Source of the DNA: Nanobdellati archaeon
GTDB taxonomy: Archaea > EX4484-52 > GLR71
Direction of reading: 5' to 3'
NCBI GenBank assembly: GCA_019429005.1
Contig: JAHYJR010000010.1
Location: forward strand, 1 to 12,137
Length of the DNA: 12,137 nucleotides
Shown: one piece after another, positions 1,494 to 5,642 of the stretch
Layout: each line of letters opens with the position of its first letter
Numbering within the stretch: position 1 is the stretch's first letter
Translations under genes and position numbers: made by a program
The notes under the pieces: model-generated
Told to the model about the DNA's origin: nothing
What the model saw: the letters and a program-made list of their open reading frames with translations, nothing else
Databases searched by the model: none

Positions 1494-1527
1494 TTCTAAG
1501 ATTAATCCACATTAAGATACTTAGAAT
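1493..1527. other. Inverted repeat between convergent genes
   Basis: ATTCTAAG (1493-1500) and CTTAGAAT (1520-1527) are perfect inverted copies separated by 19 bases. They sit where the + strand gene and the - strand pseudogene converge. The repeat could act as a two-way terminator stem, but it is AT-rich, lacks a clear T-run and may be chance. Confidence 0.3.
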
Positions 1528-2199
1528 CAAAATTATTTTTTAAAGTATCAACTATATTTTTTCACAATTCTGGTGACATAATTAAATCATCATTTGTTTT
1601 AGGAAACGATACAAGTATTGTTGGAGCAATATAAATTCCAGCATCAGACATAGAATTTGCAATTATACCAGTAGAACTATATTCAGAAAACATATATCCT
1701 GCAAATCCAATCCCCCCCTTCATAAGTTGGAAAAAAATCCAAACTCGGATGAACTGAAGATATAACAAGAGAATCTATCAAAGGAAGACCTTATCGCTCT
1801 TTTAGACCATATTCTTAAAATGATACTTCAATTGCATCAGTACTTGCTTTAACTAAACCTCTTAAATGACGAACCTCATCATGATTAAGAGTATTAAGAC
1901 CATATTATTATAGCAGTATGAAATATACCGCCCTTATTGACATCATGATTAAGAGTATTAAGACCATATTGACCATCAACCCCTAAATGTCTTTTAGAAA
2001 TAATCGCACAACGTCCTAAATATAGACCCTATCTTGGATTTAATGCGACAGTAAAAAGAAAATTATCTCCAATTATATTTGAATCATCTTTATCAGGCCC
2101 TATAAAACCCGTACATATCGGACAAGAATTATCATAAATATCTTCAATAGCTCTAAGATTCTATGCAAGTAGATACTTAGAAAAATTAATTGGTTTCAT
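1502..2199 (-). pseudogene. Decayed HIT-family (histidine triad) nucleotide-binding protein gene
   Basis: Reading from an ATG at 2199 across defects gives a protein of about 210 residues to a TAA at 1502-1504. It shows C-P-I-C near the N-terminus, then L-N-P-R-x-G-L-Y-L-G-R-C and S-K-R-H-L, and later V-H-P-S-L-D-F-F-P (1728-1751). The last aligns with the H-x-H-x-H-x-x-P active site of HIT proteins, but the second and third His have become Ser and Asp. Defects: in-frame TAG at 2161-2163 and 2029-2031; a 64-bp internal duplication that shifts the frame; TAA at 1815-1817 and 1791-1793; a +1 shift at the C7 run 1712-1718; TGA at 1562-1564 where Trp would fit. Intact relatives bind or hydrolyse nucleotide derivatives. 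The open stretch 1562-1768 is only a remnant. The family call rests on motifs read by eye. Confidence 0.7.
1877..1970. repeat. 30-bp direct repeat from a 64-bp duplication
   Basis: Bases 1877-1906 and 1941-1970 are identical over 30 bp with an offset of 64. The repeat lies inside the HIT pseudogene. Because 64 is not a multiple of three, the duplication shifts the reading frame; removing it rejoins the two conserved halves of the protein. Confidence 0.9.
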
Positions 2200-2230: not shown

Positions 2231-2557
2231 CTATTTAATAACAAGACTTTCCTTATACTTTTTTGCCATCTCAAATTCAGGCCCTAAAACAAGGCATTTT
2301 GTAGGACAAACTTCTTGACACCGTCCGCAAAAGATGCATTTTCCAAGATCAAGTGTCCAAATCTTTTCATCTCTAGATACAACAATTGCACCAGTCGGAC
2401 AAGCCCTCTGACACATACTGCAATAGATACATTTAGATTTGTTGTACTTATGTTTACCCCTAAAATCTTTTGACATTATTGGTTTAACATATGGATATTT
2501 CTGAGTAAAAGGTTTCTTAAAAAGATTTCCCACAACATCAAACAATAAATTAGCCAT
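2231..2557 (-). CDS. mbhN: Hydrogenase ferredoxin-like subunit, MbhN/EchF/NuoI type (two [4Fe-4S])
   Basis: Carries electrons between a ferredoxin partner and the small subunit of the group 4 hydrogenase on the cytoplasmic side. Counting from the ATG at 2557 (108 residues), two classical 4Fe-4S motifs are visible: C43-x2-C46-x2-C49-x3-C53-P and C74-x2-C77-x2-C80-x3-C84-P. The N-terminal 40 residues carry the R-G-K-H/K-Y region typical before the first cluster. A GTG at 2569 would add four residues, but AAGGTG at 2567-2572 sits nine bases before the ATG at 2557, which makes that ATG the better start. This site overlaps the mbhM stop codon, so translation is probably coupled. It is the last gene of the operon. 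The length fits the small MbhN/EchF form, not bacterial NuoI. Confidence 0.9.
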   Translation of the reverse strand: MANLLFDVVGNLFKKPFTQKYPYVKPIMSKDFRGKHKYNKSKCIYCSMCQRACPTGAIVVSRDEKIWTLDLGKCIFCGRCQEVCPTKCLVLGPEFEMAKKYKESLVIK

Positions 2558-2566
2558 AATTAAAAA

Positions 2567-2572
2567 CACCTT
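2567..2572 (-). promoter_or_regulatory. Ribosome-binding site that decides the mbhN start
   Basis: On the - strand AAGGTG overlaps the TAA of the previous gene and lies nine bases before ATG 2557. It matches the archaeal 16S 3' end and argues against the in-frame GTG at 2569, which falls inside this site. Confidence 0.65.
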
Positions 2573-3449
2573 AAAAAAATATTACCCTGAAAAGATCAAT
2601 AAATACAATAATCCCAGACATCCAATAGATGTTTACCGCCTGATTAATCTTTAAACGTGCAAAAATAACTCGGGAAATAAGAATTACAAACAATACAAAT
2701 ATACTTTTTAAAACAAAAATTAAAAGTGAAGAAGCACCACCCAAATAAAGCGATACCATTAAAGCTATAAGCACAAAGGTCTTAATCATATGAGCTAATT
2801 CAAGAATAGCTAACCTTGAACCCGTATATTCAGCAGTAGAACCTGCTACAATCTCTTGATGGCTCCCAGGTATATGAAATGGTGGCATCTCAATTTTAGC
2901 AAAAAAAGCAAGTAAAAAACCAAAACCAGCCAAAGGATATGAATTGATAAGCCAATTTGAATTATACACAATTGACGCAGAATTATTTACAACTGCAACT
3001 ACAACAATTGACATAGCAAGCACAATCTCATACGCAATCATTTGAACAATACCACGTATCGCACCGTGTATACCAAAAGGATTACCAGATGAAAAACCTG
3101 AAAGATAATATGCAAGAGAACTCAATACAAGCATATATAACACAAAGATAAGATCACCATTAAAAGATATCAAACCAGAAAAAACAATAGGGACTATAAG
3201 AGACACAATCAACACAGAAGATAAAGATATTACAGGCCAGATACTGAAACCATAACCTGACTGATGTGGGACAACACCCTCTTTTCCAAAAAGCTTGATT
3301 ATATCATAAACTGGTTGAATAATTGGAGGACCTACACGATTCTGCATAACTGCCGCAAGCTTTCTCAAAATACCAAAATAAAGGATACTTAAAACTAAAA
3401 CTAATAATATACCAGGATAAAACAGAATATTAAACATAGTCTCAATCAT
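2571..3449 (-). CDS. mbhM: Hydrogenase membrane subunit, MbhM/EchB/NuoH type
   Basis: A 292-residue membrane protein of the NuoH/ND1 family with about eight hydrophobic helices. It anchors the hydrogenase to the membrane and, in the family, forms the proton or sodium path next to the catalytic module. Conserved signatures are N-R-V-G-P-P (38-42) with Q-P-x-x-D-x-x-K-L-F following, and the cytoplasmic loop at about 187-210 (E-M-P-P-F-H-I-P-G-S-H-Q-E-I-V-A-G, then E-Y-T-G). In complex I relatives this loop usually reads P-F-D-x-P-E; here the Asp and the Glu are His and Gly, which may alter the ion path. AGAGGT lies about eight bases before the ATG and overlaps the mbhL stop, suggesting coupled translation. 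Confidence 0.92.
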   Translation of the reverse strand: MIETMFNILFYPGILLVLVLSILYFGILRKLAAVMQNRVGPPIIQPVYDIIKLFGKEGVVPHQSGYGFSIWPVISLSSVLIVSLIVPIVFSGLISFNGDLIFVLYMLVLSSLAYYLSGFSSGNPFGIHGAIRGIVQMIAYEIVLAMSIVVVAVVNNSASIVYNSNWLINSYPLAGFGFLLAFFAKIEMPPFHIPGSHQEIVAGSTAEYTGSRLAILELAHMIKTFVLIALMVSLYLGGASSLLIFVLKSIFVLFVILISRVIFARLKINQAVNIYWMSGIIVFIDLFRVIFF

Positions 3450-3460
3450 TCAAATTACCT

Positions 3461-4657
3461 CTAATTATATTTTTTATCAGCAATAGATCTTAAATTACTT
3501 GCATCAAGAATTTCATTTCCTGTTTGTTTTAATATAGTAACTCTATCTGTACAAGCAAAACAAGGATCAAGTGCACCTACAACAATAACAGGAACATCTG
3601 CTAAATCATGACCTATAAGCATAGTCTTGACAGATAAAAGATTAGCATAAGTAGGTGTTCGGATTTTCACACGTGCGGGTTTATTTGTACCATCAGATTT
3701 AACATAATATATCAGTTCTCCTCTTGGAGCTTCAACACGAGTTACAACCTCACCTGAAGGAACAATCAACGGCAATTTAATGTATATATCCCCTTTAGGT
3801 ATATGTTTAACACAATGTTTTACAATATCAGATGACACTATAAGTTCTTTTGCACGTACTACAACTTTTGAAAACACATCACCTTTAGTTTCAGTTATAA
3901 CATCAAATCGAATATATTTATAAGCCTCATATCCAGTATCACGCACATCATATTTTATTCCTGATGCTCTTGCTACAGGACCTACTGCAGAATATTTCTT
4001 TGCATCTTCTTTGCTTAATATACCAATATCTTTAGTCCTTAAAATAACAATATTATCTTTTGACACAATATCAATATAATGAATAACTTGTTTTTTTATG
4101 ATATCCATTGTCTTTGATATTTCGGAAAGTATTTTTGGATCCAAATCACGCCGTACACCACCGATTTTATTCATTGCATAATTGACACGATTTCCAGATA
4201 TTTTTTCAAGAAGATCCATTACATGTTCCCTATCACGCCAAACAAGTTGAAAAAGCGTATCAAGACCAATCTCATAACCAACAACACCAAGCCATAACAT
4301 ATGAGAATGAATCCTCTCTAACTCTGCAATAATTGTCCGAATATATTTAGCACGCATAGGAATCTCAGCACCATGTAACAATTCAATCGCACCACAATAT
4401 GCTATAGTGTGATGAGAACTGCAGATACCACAAATTCGCTCTGTAAGAAATACACTTTGAACATAATCTTTTTTCTCTAATGCTGCTTCAATCCCACGAT
4501 GAAGATAACCAACATTTATATCCGCATCTATTATTGTCTCACCATCAAGCCTAATATTAAAATATTCAGGCTCAAGAAGTGCAGGATGTTGTGGACCTAT
4601 TGGAATTGAATTTGATATATCTGAATTCACATTACATTTAGGTATCTTATCATCCAT
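3461..4657 (-). CDS. mbhL: [NiFe]-hydrogenase group 4 large (catalytic) subunit, MbhL/EchE type
   Basis: The 398-residue subunit that binds the Ni-Fe centre and makes or uses H2. Both metal-binding cysteine pairs are present: C76-G-I-C79 in E-R-I-C-G-I-C-S-S-H-H and C366-F-A-C369 in D-P-C-F-A-C-T-D-R. These pairs are missing in true complex I NuoD, so this is a hydrogenase. Other family marks are G-P-Q-H-P (21-25), G-Y-L-H-R-G-I-E (50-57) and the E-R-I-H-S-H helix at about 113. A 29-residue tail follows the last Cys; whether it is removed on maturation cannot be told from sequence. The start is supported by GGAAGTGAT a few bases upstream, close to the full archaeal consensus, overlapping the stop of the NuoC-like gene. 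No hyp maturation genes are in the window. Confidence 0.95.
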   Translation of the reverse strand: MDDKIPKCNVNSDISNSIPIGPQHPALLEPEYFNIRLDGETIIDADINVGYLHRGIEAALEKKDYVQSVFLTERICGICSSHHTIAYCGAIELLHGAEIPMRAKYIRTIIAELERIHSHMLWLGVVGYEIGLDTLFQLVWRDREHVMDLLEKISGNRVNYAMNKIGGVRRDLDPKILSEISKTMDIIKKQVIHYIDIVSKDNIVILRTKDIGILSKEDAKKYSAVGPVARASGIKYDVRDTGYEAYKYIRFDVITETKGDVFSKVVVRAKELIVSSDIVKHCVKHIPKGDIYIKLPLIVPSGEVVTRVEAPRGELIYYVKSDGTNKPARVKIRTPTYANLLSVKTMLIGHDLADVPVIVVGALDPCFACTDRVTILKQTGNEILDASNLRSIADKKYN

Positions 4658-4661
4658 AATA

Positions 4662-5042
4662 TCACTTCCTTAATGGTGTCTTTGGTGAATCGTGAGCAAG
4701 AAACAAATTTTCAGGTTCATCATTACCAACAATTTTCACACCAAGCATCTCTGACAATTCTCGCTCATACAATTTTGCACCTGGATACATCCCAATTATA
4801 GTATTTATTTTAGGATTATCACGCACAATCTCAATTTTTAAATTAATTGGAATATTATCCCAAATAAAAGTATATATTACTTCAATTACTTCCCCCGTAT
4901 CACAACCAGTAATATTTGAAATCCTATAGATTCCCAATTTCATTAATACGCTAAGAGCCTCTTCAAGATCTTTAACTAAAATATAATAACCGCTATTATC
5001 TTGCTTATACAAATTTCCCAATTCTTTTAACACAGCTTTCAT
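4662..5042 (-). CDS. mbhK: Hydrogenase linker subunit, MbhK/EchD/NuoC type
   Basis: A 126-residue soluble subunit that, in the family, sits against the large and small subunits and has no cofactor. The conserved C-terminal signature is visible as P-G-A-K-L-Y-E-R-E-L-S-E-M-L-G-V (about 88-103), followed by a short acidic and Pro segment ending L-F-L-A-H-D. The protein is short even for the compact NuoC type, with the N-terminal fold reduced to a helix-strand-helix region. AAAAGTGATAACTT precedes the ATG and gives a good GTGAT ribosome-binding site. It lies between the small- and large-subunit genes, the order found in mbhJKL. Confidence 0.88.
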   Translation of the reverse strand: MKAVLKELGNLYKQDNSGYYILVKDLEEALSVLMKLGIYRISNITGCDTGEVIEVIYTFIWDNIPINLKIEIVRDNPKINTIIGMYPGAKLYERELSEMLGVKIVGNDEPENLFLAHDSPKTPLRK

Positions 5043-5078
5043 AAGTTATCACTTTTATTATAAAATATTATCAATCAA

Positions 5079-5531
5079 TTAATTAGTCTCAAGAAGTTCA
5101 ATCGCTTTAATAATCCCATCCATTATAGCCTCAGGTTTAGGCGGACAGCCAGGAACATAAATATCAACAGGTATAATTTTATCAACAGGCCCTACAGAAT
5201 TATATGCATCATGAAATATACCTTTTGAAATCGCACATGCACCTATTGCAACAACAACTTTGGGTTTTGACATCTGATGATATATAAGATCGACCACATC
5301 CTTATTCTTTGCAGTAACTGTACCTGCTATTGCAAATACATCTGAATGCCTAGGATTGCCTTTCTCTTGCATTCCAAAACGCTCAACATCATACCTCGGA
5401 CTAAGGCACGCAAAAGTCTCAATACTACAACCATTACATCCACCACACTCGTAATGTAAGACCCAAGGCGATTTCTTTCTTGCAATGTTTAATATCTTAT
5501 CTTTAATTCTAAAAAGAGCAGTCTTTATCAT
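5079..5531 (-). CDS. mbhJ: [NiFe]-hydrogenase group 4 small subunit, MbhJ/EchC/NuoB type
   Basis: A 150-residue subunit holding the proximal [4Fe-4S] cluster next to the Ni-Fe site. The likely ligands are Cys32 and Cys35 (in G-G-C-N-G-C-S-I-E), Cys99 (I-G-A-C-A) and Cys129 (V-P-G-C-P-P-K-P-E). Extra cysteines at 29 and 42 are not normal ligands. The run S-P-R-Y-D-V-E-R-F-G and the R-H-S-D-V-F stretch match the MbhJ/NuoB fold. It is the first gene of a five-gene operon in the order J-K-L-M-N. No Mrp-type or antiporter-like gene precedes it: the 111 bases upstream hold only promoter-like sequence and then the end of the BatD-like gene. The ATG at 5531 has only a weak ribosome-binding site and could belong to a short-leader or leaderless mRNA. 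Confidence 0.94.
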   Translation of the reverse strand: MIKTALFRIKDKILNIARKKSPWVLHYECGGCNGCSIETFACLSPRYDVERFGMQEKGNPRHSDVFAIAGTVTAKNKDVVDLIYHQMSKPKVVVAIGACAISKGIFHDAYNSVGPVDKIIPVDIYVPGCPPKPEAIMDGIIKAIELLETN

Positions 5532-5555
5532 TATAGATATCTTTGTTAAGGTTGA

Positions 5556-5601
5556 ATATATAGATTTGGGATTTGATTAATTAAAATTAAATTTTATAAA
5601 A
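5556..5601 (-). promoter_or_regulatory. Candidate promoter of the hydrogenase operon
   Basis: Two TATA-like boxes read on the - strand. CTATATAT (5556-5563) is about 28 bases before the mbhJ ATG and would give a leaderless mRNA. TTTTATAAAA (5592-5601) would give a leader of roughly 35 bases. Either would let the hydrogenase operon be expressed apart from the upstream Bat-like operon. No operator or regulator site is recognisable. Confidence 0.5.
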
Positions 5602-5611
5602 ATAATCAAAC

Positions 5612-5640
5612 AATCCAACCAACAAAATAAAACATTCTTT
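5612..5640 (-). terminator. Possible T-rich terminator after the BatD-like gene
   Basis: Just past the TGA at 5643-5645, the - strand has a T-rich run with TTTTATTTTGTT and no hairpin. Archaeal termination at such tracts is common, but this window is AT-rich everywhere, so the call is weak. Confidence 0.3.
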
Positions 5641-5642
5641 AC

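What the first reader, a model, noticed from the sequence alone, without database searches (positions are those of the whole stretch)
2231..5531. Mbh-type [NiFe] hydrogenase operon without any antiporter subunit
The five genes match mbhJKLMN in order, and the large subunit keeps both Ni-Fe cysteine pairs. Group 4 respiratory hydrogenases I know of carry at least one NuoL-like antiporter subunit (EchA, MbhH, CooM, HycC), and Mbh also has Mrp subunits. Here the operon starts at the small subunit and ends at the ferredoxin subunit, with a different operon upstream and a pseudogene downstream. This is either a minimal enzyme with only the NuoH-like membrane part, or one whose pumping arm is encoded elsewhere.
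Basis: partly seen in the sequence, partly recalled or inferred. Interest (0 to 1): 0.68.

Follow-up and report, generated by a model that had tools for sequence, protein, structure and literature searches.

The report
Split-operon Mbh hydrogenase, pump encoded elsewhere
A small uncultured archaeon carries an ordinary hydrogen-making, ion-pumping membrane enzyme (Mbh), but its genes sit in two separate clusters, so the enzyme only looks as if it had lost its pump.

Summary
The five genes are real: mbhJKLMN at 5531-2231, minus strand, with both [NiFe] cysteine pairs, and no antiporter gene at the locus. The minimal-enzyme reading fails. The same genome (1.08 Mb, 93.6% complete) has a complete mbhABCDEFGHI cluster on contig C4 (84355-88592, minus strand), followed at once by hypC, hypD and hypE, with hypF, hypA and the hycI protease close by. 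It holds the genome's only PF00361 antiporter gene, encodes the Mbh-specific subunit MbhI, and keeps MbhD and MbhE unfused, unlike the stand-alone Mrp of Pyrococcus furiosus. Trees of J-N and of A-I place both halves with the same relatives (distance correlation 0.99 within the order). One relative in the order (G013) and two Hadesarchaea keep all fourteen genes on one contig. The window's own family shares the I|J break; another genus of the order broke the operon between J and K. Best reading: a normal ferredoxin-dependent, H2-evolving, Na+/H+-pumping Mbh whose operon was split at the boundary between hydrogenase and pump. A new member of a known kind, of modest interest.

The parts
5079..5531 (-). 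mbhJ, [4Fe-4S] small subunit (NuoB-like)
   Evidence: Pfam Oxidored_q6 1.5e-31; 51% identical to MbhJ of a Thermococcales-like genome, copy 2
4662..5042 (-). mbhK, NuoC-like subunit
   Evidence: Pfam Complex1_30kDa 3.3e-18
3461..4657 (-). mbhL, [NiFe] large subunit with both CxxC pairs (ERICGIC, DPCFAC) and the conserved Glu (Glu21 in P. furiosus) of the beta1-beta2 loop
   Evidence: Pfam Complex1_49kDa 1.3e-71; PDB 6cfw_L 2.4e-88; alignment; motif check
2571..3449 (-). mbhM, NuoH-like membrane anchor
   Evidence: Pfam NADHdh 4.4e-60
2231..2569 (-). mbhN, two-[4Fe-4S] ferredoxin-docking subunit; the likely true start is the internal ATG at 2557
   Evidence: Pfam Fer4 8.3e-16; alignment; sequence
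5532..5642 (-). intergenic region upstream of mbhJ with a TATA-like stretch (TTTATAAAAT), candidate promoter; read by eye, not tested
   Evidence: sequence

Best explanation
The window holds the hydrogenase half (J, K, L, M, N) of a complete fourteen-subunit, Mbh-type, energy-converting [NiFe] hydrogenase. The ion-pumping half (A-I) is encoded as a second operon on another contig (C4) next to the maturation genes. [quoted passage not shown] The ion gradient would drive the A-type ATP synthase encoded on C11. Shown: all genes, the cofactor ligands, uniqueness of the antiporter gene, congruent ancestry of both halves, and the intact operon in relatives. Inferred: assembly into one complex, the ion pumped and the direction of reaction. 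The locus arose by splitting of an ancestral contiguous mbhA-N operon at the I|J boundary.
For: Only one PF00361 gene in the genome, at C4:84903-85766. It lies in a nine-gene cluster in the order A-B-C-D-E-F-G-H-I; Pfam finds MNHE, MrpF, MnhG, MbhD, MbhE, MnhB, Oxidored_q2 and Proton_antipo_M for A to H. MbhI has no Pfam match but is homologous, by sequence search, to the gene after mbhH in 13 other genomes. MbhH's best solved relative is P. furiosus Mbh 6cfw_H, 6.9e-62, ahead of Mrp and complex I chains. hypC, D, E, F, A and hycI flank it. Only one Complex1_49kDa gene exists in the genome, the one in the window. G013 of the same order has A-N on one contig, as do Hadesarchaea L040 and L042. 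G002, G003 and G004 of the window's family have A-I and J-N as separate pieces well inside contigs. Concatenated trees: own J-N with family f1 92/92, own A-I with f1 98/99; both within one clade of the order at 100. Distance correlation of J-N against A-I 0.989 over 17 genomes, 0 of 2000 permutations as high. Similar composition of the two contigs (GC 0.30 and 0.28, tetranucleotide r 0.985). Transmembrane Glu, Lys, His and TM12 Lys positions of MbhH present. Module division of Mbh: PMC8415708; coupling loops: PMC11228991.
Against: Assembly of the two products is not shown. With mbhL alone, the placement of the own sequence inside family f1 was unresolved (f1 as one clade in 8% of bootstrap trees). 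MbhI is only 21-35% identical to relatives. No hypB was found, so nickel insertion would need another route or the gene lies in the missing part of the draft. Lys24 of P. furiosus MbhL is Tyr here, so details of coupling may differ. C1 and C4 are contigs of a draft genome. Distance correlation shows shared descent, not physical contact.
Confidence: 0.92

Rival explanations
1. Minimal, non-pumping hydrogenase: J-N works on its own with MbhM as sole membrane part, and the A-I cluster on C4 is an independent Mrp-type Na+/H+ antiporter.
For: The two gene sets are physically separate. In P. furiosus a stand-alone Mrp lacking MrpA exists (PMC8415708).
Against: The C4 cluster encodes MbhI, which the P. 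furiosus Mrp lacks, and unfused D and E, as in Mbh. It directly adjoins hypCDE. In G013 and the Hadesarchaea the same A-I genes are in line with J-N. Both halves share one history.
Confidence: 0.05
2. The split is an artefact: contig C1 (or C4) is misassembled or is contamination from another organism, and the real operon is contiguous.
For: The genome is a 15-contig draft and J-N lies about 2 kb from the end of C1.
Against: A-I lies at least 65 kb from either end of C4, and both sets have their own unrelated flanking genes. Composition matches. Family f1 genomes G002, G003 and G004 from other assemblies show the same I|J separation inside contigs. Estimated contamination is 1.1%.
Confidence: 0.02
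3. A sulfur-reducing MBS-type or Fpo/Nuo-like complex rather than a hydrogenase.
For: The subunits are homologous.
Against: All four [NiFe] cysteines are present; the match to MbhL 6cfw (2.4e-88) far exceeds that to the MBS chain 6u8y (1.5e-50); hydrogenase maturation genes and the HycI protease are present.
Confidence: 0.01

Closest known systems
Pyrococcus furiosus Mbh (PDB 6cfw), the membrane-bound [NiFe] hydrogenase with an Mrp-like arm
   Same: All fourteen subunits A-N, same gene order within each half, both nickel cysteine pairs, the beta1-beta2 Glu, MbhI present.
   Different: Two clusters on different contigs instead of one operon; Lys24 of MbhL replaced by Tyr; 27-51% identity per subunit to the nearer of the two copies in a Thermococcales-like genome.
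Hadesarchaea mbhA-N loci (L040, L042)
   Same: The same fourteen genes, followed by hycI, hypC, hypA and hypE; 47% identity in MbhL (L040).
   Different: Operon intact; different phylum.
Stand-alone P. furiosus Mrp antiporter
   Same: The C4 cluster shares the Mrp-type subunits with it.
   Different: The P. furiosus Mrp lacks MbhI and has D and E fused (PMC8415708).

Membership tests
Mbh-type group 4 [NiFe] hydrogenase | Large subunit with both CxxC nickel-ligand pairs | tested here: met
   ERICGIC and DPCFAC
Mbh-type group 4 [NiFe] hydrogenase | Hydrogenase module J, K, L, M, N | tested here: met
Mbh-type group 4 [NiFe] hydrogenase | Mrp-like membrane arm A-H in the same genome | tested here: met
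   C4:84678-88592
Mbh-type group 4 [NiFe] hydrogenase | MbhI linking subunit | tested here: met
   C4:84355-84681; homologous to the gene after mbhH in 13 other genomes; no PDB match by single-sequence search
Mbh-type group 4 [NiFe] hydrogenase | All genes in one operon (typical, not defining) | tested here: not met
   two contigs; also split in relatives
Mbh-type group 4 [NiFe] hydrogenase | Maturation set hypA-F and endopeptidase in the genome | tested here: inconclusive
   hypA, C, D, E, F and hycI found; hypB not found
Mbh-type group 4 [NiFe] hydrogenase | Ferredoxin-dependent H2 evolution coupled to ion pumping | not testable with these tools
   needs biochemistry
Stand-alone Mrp antiporter (for the C4 cluster) | No MbhI and no adjoining hydrogenase-related genes | tested here: not met
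   MbhI present, hypCDE adjoin
MBS sulfane sulfur reductase | Large subunit without the full set of nickel ligands (from established knowledge of MBS) | tested here: not met
   all four cysteines present

The most novel reading that the evidence does not exclude
Splitting the operon exactly at the hydrogenase/pump boundary lets the cell make the two modules in unequal amounts, so that J-N can evolve H2 without pumping, or A-I can work as an antiporter without the hydrogenase, under some conditions.
Probability: 0.08. Interest if true: 0.5.

Novelty: new member of a known kind. Interest (0 to 1): 0.22.

Why it matters
It shows how easily an operon read alone can suggest a minimal enzyme. It adds a nanohaloarchaeal order with a complete Mbh, including its Mrp-like subunits, although one survey found Mrp subunit families apparently absent from DPANN (PMC9258230). 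Two different breakpoints in one order (I|J in family f1, J|K in genus g10) give a small natural series for studying how large complexes assemble once their genes are unlinked.

Tried and rejected
Minimal enzyme: rejected by the A-I cluster. Contamination or misassembly: unlikely by composition, tree and relatives. MBS or Fpo: rejected by nickel ligands and maturation genes. Independent Mrp: disfavoured by MbhI and by contiguity in relatives. A sigma-70 promoter scan gave no more than chance (25 found, mean 20.7 in shuffles) and does not model archaeal promoters. A test for a shared motif upstream of mbhA and mbhJ was started but its script stopped; the two upstream sequences were only printed. 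MbhI gave no PDB match. No structure prediction was run, because only single chains can be folded and the question is one of assembly. Literature searches found no description of Mbh in this lineage, within an open-licence library only.

Full report
What was claimed.

Observation. The five ORFs are at the stated places and in the stated order, with the expected Pfam domains. The large subunit has both nickel-binding cysteine pairs, and its best match among solved structures is P. furiosus MbhL (6cfw_L, E 2.4e-88). The operon is bounded upstream by a MoxR/vWA gene set and downstream by an ORF remnant with stops.

Where the window lies. It is the first 12,137 bases of a 24,640-base contig (C1) of a 1.08 Mb draft genome in 15 contigs, 93.55% complete. 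Four same-order genomes have MbhL contigs whose lengths match records titled 'Candidatus Nanohalarchaeota archaeon' (8,837, 23,028, 7,102 and 10,390 bases), so the order belongs to that DPANN lineage.

The missing arm. The genome has one PF00361 gene, on contig C4 (153,733 bases). Around it lies a complete mbhA-I cluster in canonical order: A 88086-88592, B 87859-88089, C 87523-87858, D 87280-87522, E 86936-87283, F 86495-86920, G 86145-86504, H 84678-86141, I 84355-84681, all minus strand (Pfam). Next on the same strand come hypC, hypD and hypE, and within about 7 kb hypF, hypA and the hycI protease. The cluster lies at least 65 kb from either end of C4. Only one Complex1_49kDa gene exists in the genome, the one in the window. 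One hydrogenase and one antiporter module are thus the only partners available to each other.

Mbh arm or stand-alone Mrp? In P. furiosus the stand-alone Mrp has MbhD and MbhE fused and no MbhI (PMC8415708). The C4 cluster has D and E as separate genes and has MbhI, and MbhI homologues follow mbhH in 13 other genomes. MbhH matches Mbh 6cfw_H best among solved chains. This marks the cluster as an Mbh arm.

Relatives. G013 (family f6, same order) carries A-B-C-D-E-F-G-H-I-J, a UMP kinase gene, then K-L-M-N on one contig. Family f3 (G010, G016, G021) carries A to H, J, a fused K-L, M and N on one contig; no mbhI was detected there. G010 has the same UMP kinase gene between J and K-L. The two Hadesarchaea are contiguous A-N. 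In the window's own family f1, genus g3 is split at I|J (G002, G003, G004 inside contigs). Genus g10 of family f6 is split elsewhere: A to J plus the UMP kinase gene in one place (G023, G033), K onwards in another. So the ancestral state in the order was most likely contiguous, and the operon broke at least twice at different points. In genus g3 hycI and hypA lie beside mbhN, whereas in the window's genome they lie near the A-I cluster, so further rearrangement followed, or the f1 breaks were separate events.

Shared history. A concatenated J-N tree puts the window's genome with family f1 (92/92), an A-I tree does the same (98/99), and each finds the whole order as one clade at 100. Distances in the two trees correlate at 0.989 within the order. 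This shows joint vertical descent; it does not by itself show contact. With mbhL alone the position inside f1 was unresolved.

Mechanism. By homology to Mbh: ferredoxin to MbhN to MbhJ to [NiFe] in MbhL, H2 release, and coupling through loops of L, J, M and I to H and the Na+ module (PMC11228991; PMC8415708). The Glu21 and Asp379 equivalents of MbhL and the transmembrane Glu, Lys and His positions of MbhH are conserved; the Lys24 equivalent is Tyr. The genome also has an A-type ATP synthase whose rotor subunit has Gln and Glu-Thr-...-Tyr at positions typical of Na+-binding rings (the motif reading is from general knowledge), a pyruvate-type oxidoreductase and an aldehyde ferredoxin oxidoreductase family protein, which could supply reduced ferredoxin. 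Fermentative H2 production with a Na+ gradient for ATP is the most likely role. This is inference.

Verdict. The enzyme is an ordinary Mbh with a split operon: a new member of a known kind, of modest interest.

Noticed in passing
L047:7956-13548 and similar loci L016-L020, L022-L030, L032, L034, L037 (mostly Bathyarchaeota): An MbhL relative with both nickel cysteine pairs in most members sits in an operon with K- and J-like genes, a poly-ferredoxin and HdrB/HdrC-like genes (CCG domains), followed by hypF in several loci. No NuoH-like or NuoL-like gene was detected in up to 21 kb. This is a better candidate for a group-4-like hydrogenase without any pump; it forms one clade at 100/100. The rest of these genomes was not searched, and the literature was only touched.
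   Followed up: partly
L115:8318-9001, L116:11484-12170, L105:7900-8577, L100:10272-10958: A UMP kinase gene (pyrH; NCBIfam 2e-69 for the L115 copy, the others by sequence likeness) lies directly after mbhJ in several genomes of the order and marks the J|K breakpoint in genus g10.
   Followed up: partly
L098:10028-10594 and L099:8258-8827: Genus g3 of the window's family has an extra gene, apparently an HD-domain protein by eye, between mbhK and mbhL.
   Followed up: no
G000 (whole genome): No hypB was found although hypA, C, D, E, F and hycI are present.
   Followed up: no
window 1502-2199, minus strand: An ORF remnant broken by several stops, with a direct repeat of about 30 bases (AATATGGTCTTAATACTCTTAATCATGATG), downstream of mbhN; family not identified.
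   Followed up: no
L133:3097-3351 (G000 contig C11): Rotor subunit of the A-type ATP synthase with a possible Na+-binding pattern.
   Followed up: no
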